Positions 18,516 to 28,100 of a stretch of DNA of 64,000 nt are shown here, piece by piece. The DNA comes from Hydrogenophaga sp. (GTDB taxonomy: Bacteria; Pseudomonadota; Gammaproteobacteria; Burkholderiales; Burkholderiaceae_C): the NCBI GenBank assembly GCA_030653975.1, contig JAURYH010000021.1:62001-126000 (forward strand), read 5' to 3'. Position 1 is the stretch's first letter, and each line of letters begins with the position of its first letter. The notes under the pieces are model-generated. The model was not told the DNA's origin and did not search any database. It was given only the letters and a program-made list of their open reading frames with translations. A program made the translations under genes and the position numbers.

Positions 18516-20216
18516 TCATCCATCTCCTCCGGTTGATGCGCGACAGTCGCTGTGGAAGGCGGAATTGAGCGTCAGTTGGGCCACGAAGTCTCGCTGTTTC
18601 CGGACCTGCAATTCCGGTCTGTCGCTGGTGTCACGGGAGGCTGGCCGGCTCCCCTGCAAGGCCCAGGCGCGGCGCAGGTCGCCGGGCGTTTGACCGGTGA
18701 TCAGGCGAAAACATTTCTGGAAATGGCTGAAGTCGCTGAACCCCACGCTGAGCGCCACATCGGTGATGCGGCGTTGCGGTGATGCCAGCAGCAGGCGCTT
18801 GGCGTGTGCAATGCGCACATGCTGCAAGAAGAGCTTGAACGGCAGGCCCAGGCTGTCGCGAAACAGAAAGCGCAGATGCGAGACGCTCACGTGGGCCTGG
18901 TCGGCCAACTGTTCGGCCGAGATCGATTCATGGAACTGCCTGCACAAATATTGCAGGGCGCGCGCCAGCCCCGCATGCAGATGCGCGAACGCCTGTGTGT
19001 CGTGTTCCAGCACGCAGCGCACCCAGTGCTCGACGGGCCGTTCCAACACCGTCGTGAGGCTGTCCGGTAACGGAGCGGTGTCGTGGTTTTCATAGCGGGG
19101 TGCTTGCGGCTCCGCCAGGGTGTACGCCGTGCCGGCGTCCCCCAGCAAGCGGGGGGAAAGCAGGCTGATGTCGCTGGCACCGATAGGCGTGTTGGCGGTC
19201 AGCACCGCCATGCGGGCCACGGTCCATTCCAGTTGTGAGGCATTGCCGGGCCATGTGTAGTTGGTGCACCAGTGTTGAAGGGCGTCGGTCATGCGGTGCT
19301 CCGCACTGTGGCCGTGGTAGTCCAGCACGGCGCGCACCAACACCGGAATGTCTTCCGGGTGTTGTGAGAGTGGCGGCAGGGGGATCACTTTCCAGGCGCA
19401 CCGGCTCCAGGCACCGTGAGGAATGGGGCTGCTGTTGGGATCTGGCAGGTGCTGTGCCTTCAGCGCAATCACCAGCCGGCAGGCCCGGTTGCCGTCCATC
19501 TGTGTGGCGGGGCCGATGGCCTGCTCCAGTTGCAGCCACAGGTGTTCCTGGTCGGCGCGGGTGCCGCTGTCCGTGTTGCACAGGAACAGGGTGCCACCGC
19601 GCGCGCGATCCACCCAGCGCCAGGGCGACTCCAAGGTGGTCGCGCAATCCACCGTGACGAACGCCTGCCCGGCCCCGCCGCCAGCGTGGTGAATGGCCAC
19701 CGCGGTTTGCAAGGCTTCGTTGCCGCTGGTACCCAGCAGCGCGACCGGGCGGGTGTCGACACAGCTCTCTTCAATGTGGCGATCCAGCGCCAGCATGGCC
19801 GGGCTGGAGCCGATCAGGCACGGCGCACCCAGCTGTGCCTGCACCACCCAGCGCTGGCTGGCCAGGCGCTGGACGGTGCCGGCGCACTGAAAGGCCAACT
19901 CCGTCAGCGCCGACTCGTACCCAGGCCCCATGACCGGGTGGGGCAACAACTGCAGCCGCAGTGCGCCGAGTTGTCGGCGGGAAAACTCCAGCGCCAGCAC
20001 CACGCTGCGTTGCATGTGCGGGGCGCTGCGGCCCACGGCACCGCCGACCAGCAGGGGTTGCTGCCCGAAGAGCTCCAGGCTGGCCACTTCCCACCAATGG
20101 CGGCATGCGCTGCGCTCCAGCAGCCGCCGAATTTCGGCGAGCTCGCTCAAGTAGGGCACGACCGAGCGATGCGGCGCCCGGCTGGGCTCGCTGTCCGCGG
20201 CTTCCGTACGGATCAA
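18516..20216 (-). CDS. AraC-type regulator with degenerate sigma54-activator-like AAA+ domain
   Basis: 566 residues. The C-terminal part (about 415-520) is a two-helix-turn-helix AraC domain (ISAEQLADQAHVSVSHLRFL, ITDVALSVGFSDFSHFQKCF). The middle (about 130-350) resembles an enhancer-binding-protein AAA+ domain: LIGSSPAML at the domain entry, GGTLFL (207-212), and WPGNASQLEW (322-331) in place of WPGNVRELEN. Its ATP machinery is broken: the Walker A region reads ALLGTSGNEALQ, the Walker B acidic pair is replaced by CN, and GAFTGA is absent. The first 130 residues are unassigned. It is divergent from the reb genes and is the obvious candidate for their regulator. Function is inferred from position. 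Confidence 0.75.
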   Translation of the reverse strand: MIRTEAADSEPSRAPHRSVVPYLSELAEIRRLLERSACRHWWEVASLELFGQQPLLVGGAVGRSAPHMQRSVVLALEFSRRQLGALRLQLLPHPVMGPGYESALTELAFQCAGTVQRLASQRWVVQAQLGAPCLIGSSPAMLALDRHIEESCVDTRPVALLGTSGNEALQTAVAIHHAGGGAGQAFVTVDCATTLESPWRWVDRARGGTLFLCNTDSGTRADQEHLWLQLEQAIGPATQMDGNRACRLVIALKAQHLPDPNSSPIPHGAWSRCAWKVIPLPPLSQHPEDIPVLVRAVLDYHGHSAEHRMTDALQHWCTNYTWPGNASQLEWTVARMAVLTANTPIGASDISLLSPRLLGDAGTAYTLAEPQAPRYENHDTAPLPDSLTTVLERPVEHWVRCVLEHDTQAFAHLHAGLARALQYLCRQFHESISAEQLADQAHVSVSHLRFLFRDSLGLPFKLFLQHVRIAHAKRLLLASPQRRITDVALSVGFSDFSHFQKCFRLITGQTPGDLRRAWALQGSRPASRDTSDRPELQVRKQRDFVAQLTLNSAFHSDCRASTGGDG

Positions 20217-20393
20217 GGGGGAGGCCTGCGAGGCAGGGTTTTACGGCGTCACGGCAGCGCCGTGGAATAGCTTCGAAATGGCGCCCTCGGCTGGCGCAGG
20301 GTGCCCCGGTGCACGGCGGGGCTAACGGCGTATCGCGCTTGGATCACAGTACTTCTCCCTTTTCTTGGCCGTCATTTTTTTATCGGCCCATGC

Positions 20394-20413
20394 CAGTGGC
20401 CATGCGGCCACTG
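20394..20413. promoter_or_regulatory. perfect 8-bp dyad CAGTGGCC/GGCCACTG in the reb control region
   Basis: CAGTGGCC, four bases, GGCCACTG. It lies about 290 bp upstream of the first reb start and 178 bp from the regulator start. There is no U-run next to it in either direction, so it looks more like an operator or an RNA hairpin than a terminator. Binding partner unknown. Confidence 0.4.
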
Positions 20414-26850: not shown

Positions 26851-26915
26851 GCGCGCCCAGAGCACATTTTTTGCCCACTGCGTCAAAACCGTTTGGACGA
26901 CCGAAGGACCGAACC

Positions 26916-28100
26916 ATGCCCTGGATGACCGACCTCTTTTATGATCCCGCGCTGCCCGGGGCTCCACGGGGCGCCTTCCAGGACCGGCCGCTGCACCAGA
27001 TCACGCTGCCCGGCACCCATGATTCGGGCTGTTACCGGGACCAGCGGATTTCCAACGTCTACTCCGCCACGCAGACCCAGGACATCTTTCAACAGCTCGC
27101 CGGCGGCATTCGCTATTTCGACCTCCGGCCCTGCGCCAGGGGCGCCGAGTTTTGGACCTACCACGGCCAGTTCTACTGGGGCGGGGAGTTGACCGGCGCC
27201 GACGGGATCCTGCAGCAGATCAGAGACTACTTTGACAGCCTGGCCCCGACCGACCGCGAGCTGGTGATCTTGAACGTGTCGCACTTCTACAAGTTCACCA
27301 ACCTGCTGCATGGCAACCTCGTCGCGGCCATCCAGGCCGCCTTGGGGCCGTATCTGGTCGAGTACACCCAGAACAACATCGACCTGTGCAACTGCCCCTA
27401 TTGGCAGCTCCTGTCCACGCCGACCGTTGCCAACGGGCCACCGCCAGGCGCCATCGGCGGTGCCGTTCTGAAGTCGCGCGTGCTGATCCTGTACGACGGC
27501 GCGCTCGACACCCCGCAGGAGGCCTATGTGATGAACCTGCCCTTTACCGCTCCGCCCAATGGCATCCCGGGCTTTTTCGTCGTGGCGCCCAAGTACGCAG
27601 CACCCGCCAACCCGATTGAACTGTTTGACCAGTATTCCAACCTCGGTCGGGTCGACGATGGCTATGTGCTCTCTGGCATACGCACCGACCAGCTCAACAA
27701 ACTGCGCAACCGGCAGAACTTCGCCTACACCACCCAGCCCTTCAACCCGGGCAACTGGACGGCCAACGCCGTGGGCGGCGTGGCCGGCACATTGCACCTG
27801 TTGTCGTGGACGCTGACGCCGCAGTTCTCACTGACCCTCACCGGCACCTGGGACCCGCTGGAAGCCGCACAACAAATCGCCAACCCCTTGCTGCTGAACC
27901 TGTTCTGCGGCGCCCATCGCGGCTGGGCCGGTGTTTGCTACAACGCGGCCATGGACCCCCAAATCAACATCATCTACGTGGACGACTACGACTCCACCAA
28001 ACACCAGAACACCGGATCGCCATGGAACGGCATGGCGATCCCGGTGGCGATTGCCGCGCGCATGAACGTGGGGCCGGTGGGGGAAAGAAACACCTGGTGA
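26916..28100 (+). CDS. PI-PLC X-domain-like phospholipase, R-body locus
   Basis: 394 residues from the ATG at 26916 (MPWMTDLFYDP). Catalytic-type motifs of bacterial phosphatidylinositol-specific phospholipase C are present: LPGTHDSG with H35, GGIRYFDLRP (64-72), and WTYHG with H83. These correspond to the two catalytic histidines and the conserved acidic residues. There is no signal peptide, so it would stay in the cytoplasm until lysis. It is the last gene of the R-body operon, 65 bp after the nucleotidyltransferase-like gene. It may damage host membranes when R-bodies release cell contents; that role is inferred. Confidence 0.75.
   Translation: MPWMTDLFYDPALPGAPRGAFQDRPLHQITLPGTHDSGCYRDQRISNVYSATQTQDIFQQLAGGIRYFDLRPCARGAEFWTYHGQFYWGGELTGADGILQQIRDYFDSLAPTDRELVILNVSHFYKFTNLLHGNLVAAIQAALGPYLVEYTQNNIDLCNCPYWQLLSTPTVANGPPPGAIGGAVLKSRVLILYDGALDTPQEAYVMNLPFTAPPNGIPGFFVVAPKYAAPANPIELFDQYSNLGRVDDGYVLSGIRTDQLNKLRNRQNFAYTTQPFNPGNWTANAVGGVAGTLHLLSWTLTPQFSLTLTGTWDPLEAAQQIANPLLLNLFCGAHRGWAGVCYNAAMDPQINIIYVDDYDSTKHQNTGSPWNGMAIPVAIAARMNVGPVGERNTW

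What the first reader, a model, noticed from the sequence alone, without database searches (positions are those of the whole stretch)
18516..28100. R-body locus with tandem reb genes, unknown accessory proteins, a nucleotidyltransferase-like protein and a PI-PLC-like protein
Seen: four near-identical Reb proteins, three Reb-like variants, then four further genes in one direction with small gaps, ending with a protein with PI-PLC X motifs. Known: Reb proteins form R-bodies that unroll into membrane-piercing tubes in Caedibacter and are widespread in proteobacteria. Inferred: in this diazotroph-type genome the R-body transcript also encodes two candidate effectors (616-residue and 394-residue proteins) without signal peptides, so R-body extension may release or deliver enzymes that act on eukaryotic or bacterial membranes and nucleotides.
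Basis: partly seen in the sequence, partly recalled or inferred. Interest (0 to 1): 0.92.

Follow-up and report, generated by a model that had tools for sequence, protein, structure and literature searches.

The report
R-body locus carrying enzyme payload genes
A bacterium carries genes for R-bodies, coiled protein ribbons known to spring open and burst cells, next to genes for membrane- and nucleotide-enzyme-like proteins that change from species to species, which makes them candidates for the long-sought poison that such ribbons release.

Summary
In detail: 18516-28100 is an R-body (reb) locus of a Hydrogenophaga-like genome. Its core (four Rebs, two Reb-like proteins, HP1.2, HP1.1) is the published 'Group 1' synteny. 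What I found undescribed lies downstream: an Ala/Pro-rich gene, a 616-aa protein (P0002) and a PI-PLC-like protein, both without an obvious signal peptide. The linkage is real: HP1.1, P0002 and the PI-PLC-like gene occur in the same 2 of 60 relative genomes, and every P0002 relative found lies in a reb locus (Hydrogenophaga, Eleftheria, Xanthomonas). Across 32 HP1.1 loci the same slot varies: PI-PLC-like; an unrelated phospholipase C (Caulobacter); GH25 muramidase with spanin-like genes (Rugamonas); NUDIX plus Rv2525c-like hydrolase (Xanthomonas); a 1155-aa protein (Azospirillum). 23 of 32 carry a recognised accessory gene, 9 none. A direct repeat flanks the module. Best reading: an R-body release device with co-regulated, swappable enzyme payload. 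Payload function is inferred, not shown; the nucleotidyltransferase label rests on a motif; transcription, structure and activity were not tested.

The parts
17807..17921 (+). left copy of a flanking direct repeat; 3' end of a small gene (17485-17925)
   Evidence: 115 nt, 75% identical to 28148-28262; blastn E 3e-19; the gene's only other match in the genome is the right copy (E <= 0.001, 40 of 94 candidates scored)
18516..20216 (-). divergent regulator: degenerate AAA (sigma-54-activator-like) domain plus AraC-type HTH; start codon uncertain
   Evidence: PF12833 3e-22, PF14532 4e-9; 35% identical to the regulator of the Eleftheria reb locus; this type in 24 of 32 loci, window included
20702..20998 (+). 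Reb 1
   Evidence: PF11747 1e-30
21102..21371 (+). Reb 2
   Evidence: PF11747 six-frame hit; 92.1% identical to Reb 1
21442..21711 (+). Reb 3
   Evidence: PF11747 2e-30
21775..22047 (+). Reb 4
   Evidence: PF11747 1e-29
22104..22301 (+). short Reb-like protein, Raymann's HP1.4 (GTG start, as listed mechanically)
   Evidence: PF11747 3e-16; size and order as in PMC3583457
22298..22846 (+). Reb-like protein with Pro/Ala-rich tail, Raymann's HP1.3; overlaps HP1.4 by 4 bp
   Evidence: PF11747 8e-17
22887..23228 (+). HP1.2
   Evidence: no Pfam hit; homologue before HP1.1 in 26 of 31 other loci
23278..24378 (+). HP1.1 (P0004), partner specific to Group 1 reb loci according to Raymann et al.
   Evidence: no Pfam hit above cut-off; 28 relatives in genome contigs
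24384..24977 (+). Ala/Pro-rich protein with Ala/Gln-rich C-terminal half (P0003), conserved in position after HP1.1
   Evidence: dN/dS 0.31; low complexity, so homology is less sure than for the other genes
25000..26850 (+). 616-aa protein P0002, seen only in reb loci, KGG(71)...DWDTQ(96) motif, no obvious signal peptide
26916..28100 (+). 394-aa PI-PLC-like protein P0001, no obvious signal peptide
   Evidence: PDB PI-PLC matches; 94% identical in H. taeniospiralis and 68% in Rugamonas; dN/dS 0.125
28137..28259 (+). right copy of the flanking direct repeat, 36 bp after the PI-PLC-like gene
   Evidence: related copy after the same gene in H. taeniospiralis (L024 15617-15700)

Best explanation
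The window holds a Group 1 R-body module that carries its own payload. Shown: a conserved backbone (Rebs, HP1.4-HP1.1, Ala/Pro-rich protein) is joined to a variable slot that in different lineages holds different enzymes or enzyme-like proteins, usually with the same unusual AAA-AraC regulator; in the window the slot holds P0002 and a PI-PLC-like protein without an obvious signal peptide. Inferred: the regulator switches the module on in some cells; Reb proteins polymerise into a coiled ribbon while the payload accumulates in the cytoplasm; when the cell is swallowed by a protist or otherwise triggered, the ribbon extends, breaks the producer's envelope (helped in some lineages by a muramidase and spanin-like proteins) and frees the enzymes onto the grazer's membrane, where the PI-PLC-like protein would cut phosphatidylinositol or GPI anchors. 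P0002 may be a nucleotide-transferring toxin or a payload-handling protein.
For: Linkage: HP1.1, P0002 and PI-PLC-like gene each in the same 2 of 60 genomes, the window's own and one congener. P0002 in 1 of 399 order and 1 of 369 class genomes, the window's own in both; in 1 of 72,556 plasmid records, an Eleftheria reb locus; in 8 of 28 HP1.1 genomes, one copy each, at the reb locus, one of the eight a weak partial match. Slot variation with membrane- or wall-active enzymes: PI-PLC-like in Hydrogenophaga and Rugamonas, unrelated PF04185 phospholipase C in Caulobacter, GH25 in H. taeniospiralis and Rugamonas, spanin-like pair in Rugamonas, NUDIX and Rv2525c-like hydrolase in Xanthomonas and Eleftheria. 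No signal-peptide-like N-terminus on the PI-PLC-like protein or P0002. Purifying selection. Module bounded by a direct repeat with no third match in the genome. Precedent: recombinant R-bodies alone do not kill Paramecium and an unknown toxin is thought to be needed (PMC3583457, PMC7297999; passages). A published table of the Vibrio coralliilyticus reb island also lists a muramidase, a phospholipase D-family protein and an AraC/AtoC regulator (PMC7457808).
Against: Nine of 32 loci have no recognised accessory gene; five of these nine also lack HP1.2 and look incomplete, four (L023, L028, L029, L050) do not. The PI-PLC-like gene is known in only three loci, two of them congeners. GH25 and spanin-like proteins carry export-like segments and may serve lysis rather than poisoning. 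P0002 relatives in Azospirillum have lost the DWD motif (0 of 6), which argues for a non-catalytic role of that superfamily. The Caulobacter phospholipase has a hydrophobic stretch near its start (1.85); I read it as a core strand next to the catalytic motif, which is recalled, not tested. Whether the C-terminal half of the PI-PLC-like protein completes the barrel is unknown. No expression, R-body or activity data. Most loci come from two genera, so counts are not independent. In Azorhizobium R-body production itself is tied to host-cell death and no payload is described in the passages that I read (PMC5527310). In the V. coralliilyticus table the phospholipase row (p = 1) is not associated with larval mortality, unlike the reb rows and the muramidase row.
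Confidence: 0.55

Rival explanations
1. The accessory proteins belong to assembly, maturation or control of the R-body, not to a payload: P0002 and its relatives are R-body-associated factors (like RapA in Pseudomonas), and the phospholipase-like proteins have been recruited for structural or regulatory work.
For: P0002 relatives were found only in reb loci; the wider P0002/P0018/P0013 superfamily is in 17 of 32 loci, and in Azospirillum the DWD motif is gone (0 of 6). RapA is a reb-cluster product that co-localises with the R-body (PMC8322103, passages).
Against: Two unrelated phospholipase C families, a muramidase and a NUDIX protein in the same slot look like swapping of activities, not like structural parts; nine loci do without any recognised one.
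Confidence: 0.25
2. The accessory genes form a self-lysis cassette: they act on the producer's own envelope so that R-bodies and cell contents come out.
For: GH25 plus spanin-like pair in Rugamonas and GH25 in H. taeniospiralis, the two GH25s being 46% identical; Rv2525c-like hydrolase in 11 of 32 loci.
Against: It does not explain a PI-specific enzyme, since phosphatidylinositol is rare in most Gram-negative membranes (general knowledge), nor NUDIX or P0002. The window locus has no muramidase between P0002 and the PI-PLC-like gene (65 bp gap).
Confidence: 0.12
3. Hitch-hiking: the module is a genomic island and the accessory genes are passengers without a working link to R-bodies.
For: Flanking direct repeat; several orphan slot genes in other loci have low GC compared with their locus, e.g. 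0.437 against 0.650, a sign of recent acquisition.
Against: The same genes recur with reb in different genera and P0002 was seen nowhere else; tight spacing (5, 22, 65 bp) and purifying selection in the window.
Confidence: 0.08

Closest known systems
Group 1 reb synteny of Raymann et al. 2013 (PMC3583457)
   Same: Tandem Rebs followed by HP1.4, HP1.3, HP1.2, HP1.1 with the published sizes and order. The survey says that an A. brasilense plasmid carries the four; an A. brasilense plasmid does so here too, whether of the same strain I did not check.
   Different: The text that I read (section 11 whole, passages elsewhere; figures are not held) names no downstream enzymes, no Ala/Pro-rich gene and no AraC regulator. 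Its 50% identity family cut-off would part the window's P0002 from the Eleftheria and Xanthomonas ones (35-38%).
Caedibacter R-body killer system
   Same: R-body made of Reb proteins; killing is thought to need a further toxin that has not been identified (PMC3583457, PMC7297999; passages).
   Different: Raymann et al. found no homologues of the Caedibacter plasmid proteins in other reb taxa; I did not search Caedibacter genomes for the window's accessory genes.
Pseudomonas aeruginosa reb cluster with RapA, RcgA, FecI2 (PMC8322103)
   Same: Extra reb-cluster proteins beside the Rebs; the authors suggest that R-body cells act as kamikazes that release other products (passages).
   Different: Other partner genes and regulators are named. 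The nuclease Ribocin that R-bodies may help deliver has a signal peptide, and its authors leave its delivery open (PMC13189344, passages).
Vibrio coralliilyticus RE22 reb island (PMC7457808, section 7 read whole)
   Same: Rebs, an AraC/AtoC regulator, a muramidase, a phospholipase D-family protein and a 1187-aa protein in one ~30 kb island.
   Different: Different enzyme families. In the section and passages that I read the authors discuss the reb genes and do not propose the enzymes as R-body payload.
Bacterial PI-specific phospholipase C (PDB 2plc, 1aod, 4f2b and others)
   Same: Catalytic N-terminal part aligns: THDSG, YFDLR, YHG.
   Different: No obvious signal peptide, 394 aa instead of about 300, C-terminal half not aligned, no Pfam match.

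Membership tests
R-body (reb) locus, Group 1 synteny | Several clustered Reb (PF11747) proteins | tested here: met
   Six PF11747 hits over the cut-off within window 20732-22516
R-body (reb) locus, Group 1 synteny | HP1.1-HP1.4 beside the Rebs | tested here: met
   Sizes 366, 113, 182, 65 aa in the published order; homologues of all four in an A. brasilense plasmid locus
R-body (reb) locus, Group 1 synteny | Cells form coiled, extendable R-bodies | not testable with these tools
   Needs microscopy. H. taeniospiralis, which carries the orthologous locus, is named as an R-body organism in PMC13430693 (passage)
Bacterial PI-specific phospholipase C | His/Asp/Arg motifs of the catalytic X region | tested here: met
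   Aligned with 4s3g, 4i90 and others; conserved in 3 of 3 members. Which residues are catalytic is recalled
Bacterial PI-specific phospholipase C | Match to a curated family model | tested here: not met
   No Pfam family up to E 10, no NCBIfam family up to 0.1. Hence called PI-PLC-like, not filed as a member
Bacterial PI-specific phospholipase C | Complete barrel and activity on PI | not testable with these tools
Nucleotidyltransferase superfamily (P0002) | G-G then D-x-D catalytic motif | tested here: inconclusive
   KGG at 71 and DWD at 96 in the window; both in 10 of 10 P0002/P0018 proteins; likeness to AbiEii-type motifs is recalled
Nucleotidyltransferase superfamily (P0002) | Profile or fold match to a known nucleotidyltransferase | tested here: not met
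   0 of 9 members match any Pfam family up to E 10; no PDB profile match up to E 10; AlphaFold mean pLDDT 41.5, so no fold search was made
Polymorphic-toxin or injection-system payload | Different effectors in one conserved slot | tested here: met
   At least six kinds of accessory gene over the 23 of 32 loci that have one. That they are effectors is not shown
Polymorphic-toxin or injection-system payload | Immunity gene or shared docking domain | not tested
   No systematic search made

The most novel reading that the evidence does not exclude
R-bodies of the Group 1 type are a general, secretion-independent release platform with swappable payload cassettes: one conserved ribbon-and-regulator module is fitted by different bacteria with different cytoplasmic enzymes (PI-PLC-like, phospholipase C, NUDIX, glycoside hydrolase, a reb-specific nucleotidyltransferase-like family), some with a phage-type lysis cassette, and these are the missing killer toxins of R-body biology.
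Probability: 0.35. Interest if true: 0.9.

Novelty: new variant of a known kind. Interest (0 to 1): 0.74.

Why it matters
R-bodies have been known for decades, and the toxin that they are thought to release is still called unknown (PMC7297999 of 2020; PMC13430693 of 2026). In what I read, neither reb survey (PMC3583457, PMC13430693) describes the genes downstream of HP1.1. If the slot is a payload slot, the question becomes directly testable: each lineage names its own candidate, and H. taeniospiralis, whose genome is sequenced and which the literature names as an R-body organism, carries the same PI-PLC-like gene and P0002 as the window. A phospholipase kept inside the producer until an R-body breaks it open would be a simple, secretion-free weapon against grazing protists. 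The same lists would name lysis and assembly factors if the payload reading fails.

Tried and rejected
Structure route: AlphaFold of P0002 with eight sequences gave mean pLDDT 41.5 and was not used for fold searches.

Phage origin: no P0002 match in 50,697 phage records and no relative of P0002, its alignment, the PI-PLC-like alignment or the HP1.1 alignment in viral contigs, at the sensitivity of those pattern scans. Matches of P0001 in phage records were short, 29-33% identical, in Listeria and Staphylococcus records. Rejected as a source on these collections.

Operon by terminator scan: 5 terminator-like sites against 6.2 expected, no sigma-70-like promoter; uninformative. Two overlapping + strand sites at 21702-21724 lie between Reb 3 and Reb 4, within chance.

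Direct P0002-P0013 homology by profile comparison was not significant (2% probability); the link stands only through P0018.

Weak PI-PLC matches in three class genomes are not of the R-body type: no RebB in any of the three (that search rang nowhere, but the same family search rings).

Unassigned slot genes: Pfam, NCBIfam and PHROGs gave nothing usable for those of L031, L033, L034, L039 and L047 that I scanned.

A paper search for lysis terms returned 608 papers by any three of six terms; none of the eight listed was about R-bodies.

Counts and dropped rows: no locus was dropped from the slot table of 32. L035, L037 and L043 end at contig ends close to the slot and are counted as they stand; L025 and L043 show HP1.1 but no Reb hit. 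Of eight plasmid records with HP1.1 I opened three. In the dS comparison with flanking genes I leave out modA (36% identical, probably not an orthologue; dS 0.71). The ORF choice is a simple GC3-based pick.
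Full report
What is there. The interval 18516-28100 contains, in order, a divergent regulator, four Reb proteins, two further Reb-like proteins, HP1.2, HP1.1, an Ala/Pro-rich protein, a 616-aa protein (P0002) and a 394-aa PI-PLC-like protein (P0001). Gaps are 103, 70, 63, 56, -4, 40, 49, 5, 22 and 65 bp from the first Reb to P0001 (from the coordinates and the starts used). A six-frame search of the whole genome (4.09 Mb, 74 contigs) finds RebB only here, six times.

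Host. P0001's match in genome G796, listed as same genus, lies at C11:194142, which equals its place in L024 (Hydrogenophaga taeniospiralis, contig range 179753-200850). The window genome is therefore a Hydrogenophaga, by inference.

The core is known. Raymann et al. 2013 define a Group 1 reb synteny by HP1.1 (~360 aa), HP1.2 (~110-120 aa), HP1.3 (~170 aa, Reb-like) and HP1.4 (~60-80 aa, Reb-like), found only with reb genes (PMC3583457, section 11 read whole). The window has 366, 113, 182 and 65 aa in that order. The 2026 survey of reb genes says that it ignored non-Reb neighbours such as HP1.1 (PMC13430693, passages and section 18).

What lies downstream I did not find described. I collected 31 loci with HP1.1: 28 from one scan of genome contigs and three of the eight plasmid records that hold it, and compared their ORFs with the accessory proteins. 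With the window that makes 32. Of the 31, 26 also have HP1.2 and two (L025, L043) show no Reb hit. The slot after HP1.1 and the Ala/Pro-rich gene holds: P0002-type protein in 9 of 32 (window, Eleftheria, H. taeniospiralis, six Xanthomonas); PI-PLC-like protein in 3 of 32 (window, H. taeniospiralis, Rugamonas); PF04185 phospholipase C in 1 (Caulobacter L044; 8e-61; best PDB match non-specific phospholipase C4, 9e-32); GH25 muramidase in 2 (L024 2e-44; L026 6e-42), 46% identical to each other; NUDIX protein in 6 and Rv2525c-like glycoside hydrolase in 11 (the Pfam matches were made on the Eleftheria proteins); a 1155-aa family, P0013, in 7 Azospirillum-type loci, one of them a fragment at a contig end; and an 826-aa relative, P0018, in 1 (L048). 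Nine of 32 (L023, L025, L027, L028, L029, L043, L045, L049, L050) hold none of these; five of the nine also lack HP1.2. In Rugamonas the PI-PLC-like gene is followed on the same strand by an Rz-like protein (phrog_214, 2e-4), a small protein whose best match is an unknown family (phrog_20914, 4e-8) and which also matches Rz-like spanins (phrog_456, 3e-5; PF23793, Rz1-like, 2e-4, below its cut-off), and the GH25 (phrog_291 endolysin, 1e-39). That looks like a phage-type lysis cassette. The loci are not independent: most are Azospirillum or Xanthomonas.

The linkage is specific. In 60 relative genomes (36 of them of the genus) HP1.1, P0002 and the PI-PLC-like protein each occur in the same two, the window's own and G796. 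P0002 occurs in 1 of 399 order genomes and, with the alignment, 1 of 369 class genomes, both times the window's own; in the rows shown at most three candidates were scored per genome. In a draw of 399 order genomes with the same handles 6 have RebB, and the five others gave no P0002 match. Among 72,556 plasmid records one has P0002, inside a reb locus. In the 28 genomes of the HP1.1 scan P0002 occurs in 8, once each, and the coordinates fall in the reb locus each time (one, L048, is a weak partial match at 8e-4). Near-full-length PI-PLC-like relatives appeared only in reb loci in the searches made; three class genomes have weak matches to the catalytic region and no RebB.

The module as a unit. 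The window and H. taeniospiralis are colinear from the regulator to the end of P0002 (18515-26850, 90% identical) and again over the PI-PLC-like gene (26901-28101, 92%); H. taeniospiralis has a GH25 gene between them. dN/dS between the two: HP1.3 0.06, HP1.1 0.11, PI-PLC-like 0.125, HP1.2 0.21, P0002 0.21, regulator 0.26, Ala/Pro-rich 0.31. dS is 0.10-0.27 for nine of the eleven module genes compared (0.40 for HP1.3, 0.53 for the Ala/Pro-rich gene), against 0.41 and 0.70 for the neighbouring modC and modB genes; transfer or recombination of the module is one reading. A direct repeat of about 115-123 nt (75-77% identical) sits at 17807-17921, the 3' end of a small gene, and at 28137-28259, just after the PI-PLC-like gene; the genome search showed no third match, and H. 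taeniospiralis has a related copy just after its PI-PLC-like gene. So the accessory genes lie inside the unit's borders. In Rugamonas P0002 is absent between the Ala/Pro-rich and PI-PLC-like genes, which shows that the pieces can be exchanged.

The proteins. P0001 aligns with bacterial PI-PLCs over about residues 24-106, with THDSG, YFDLR and YHG at the positions of the catalytic motifs; its Rugamonas relative matches 2plc at 3e-10 over 125 residues. No Pfam or NCBIfam model matches, and the C-terminal part is unassigned. A hydrophobicity scan of the first 40 residues shows no signal-peptide-like stretch in P0001 (0.36) or P0002 (1.09), against 2.0-2.4 in the GH25 and Rz-like proteins. P0002 has KGG at 71 and DWDTQ at 96; both are present in 10 of 10 P0002/P0018 proteins, while DWD is absent from 6 of 6 P0013 proteins, two of which have a KGG elsewhere. 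P0018 links the two families: it matches the P0002 profile (1.5e-8) and the P0013 profile (8e-12) at overlapping regions (hhalign with P0002 96.9% over 84 columns), whereas P0002 and P0013 do not match directly. The nucleotidyltransferase idea is thus a motif-based guess. NUDIX boxes are complete in 6 of 6 proteins. The regulator joins a degenerate AAA domain to an AraC HTH and is found in 24 of 32 loci; in most of these it is convergent at the far end of the slot, in the window and H. taeniospiralis it is divergent upstream, in Rugamonas upstream on the same strand.

Most likely working. The anatomy fits a device that stores cytoplasmic enzymes and frees them by R-body extension. R-bodies from recombinant E. 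coli do not kill Paramecium, so a further toxin is thought to be required (PMC3583457, passages; PMC7297999, passages). That the payload is released, and what it does, is inferred. Roles in assembly or in self-lysis remain open and are weighed above. In Azorhizobium derepressed R-body production goes with host-cell death, with no payload mentioned in the passages that I read (PMC5527310).

What is in print. Searches: reb, R-body and phospholipase (3 papers; passages of all three read); Hydrogenophaga taeniospiralis and R-bodies (3 papers; PMC3764935 seen in the listing only); R-bodies with toxin delivery, reb genes, effector (5 papers; PMC11909080 seen in the listing only); and a first broad search (41 papers, 30 listed, of which I opened seven). 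In the passages that I read no paper proposes enzymes beside reb genes as payload. One table is close: the V. coralliilyticus RE22 reb island lists a muramidase, a phospholipase D-family protein, a 1187-aa protein and an AraC/AtoC regulator (PMC7457808, section 7 read whole). In that section and the passages the authors treat the reb genes as virulence-associated and do not discuss these enzymes as cargo; the phospholipase row has p = 1, the muramidase row p = 5.7e-4. This supports recurrence and lowers the novelty of the bare association. The library holds open-licence papers only.

Noticed in passing
window 17807-17921 and 28137-28259: Direct repeat that brackets the R-body module; the left copy is the 3' end of a small gene, as if the module had entered at a gene end. 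I noticed no integrase gene among the ORFs of the interval, without a search for one.
   Followed up: partly
window 18516-20216; L021 13764-15272; L022 16604-18253: Regulator type with a degenerate sigma-54-activator AAA domain (Walker A altered and no GAFTGA, by eye) fused to an AraC HTH, in 24 of 32 loci with HP1.1.
   Followed up: partly
L038 11961-16985 compared with L022 11999-15466: P0013-type protein with a C-terminal extension of about 500 residues in one Azospirillum, and low-GC orphan genes (0.48-0.54) between P0013 and the regulator in others; looks like polymorphic-toxin-style turnover.
   Followed up: no
L033 12963-14060, L039 13117-15220, L047 12812-13387: Low-GC orphan genes (0.44-0.54 against about 0.65) in the slot of Xanthomonas loci in which P0002 was not found; the 410-aa one matches PDB 4m0m, an uncharacterised protein, at 2e-7 over 79 residues.
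   Followed up: partly
L025 9878-11511: HP1.1 and Ala/Pro-rich gene without a Reb hit nearby in a Dechloromonas MAG; possibly a decayed locus.
   Followed up: no
L049 9089-11579: Xanthomonas locus with one Reb hit, HP1.1 and Ala/Pro-rich gene but no recognised slot gene and no regulator hit; possibly decayed.
   Followed up: no
L043 535-2393: In a Geobacter MAG contig of 4.3 kb HP1.1 is followed, with a 4-bp overlap, by an ORF that looks by eye like an alpha/beta hydrolase; a possible further slot enzyme, not scanned.
   Followed up: no
window 5001-14000: Stretch of lower GC (0.59-0.63) than most of the window; a possible separate island.
   Followed up: no
window 21702-21724: Terminator-like hairpins with a T-run between Reb 3 and Reb 4; the count of such sites in the region is within chance.
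   Followed up: no
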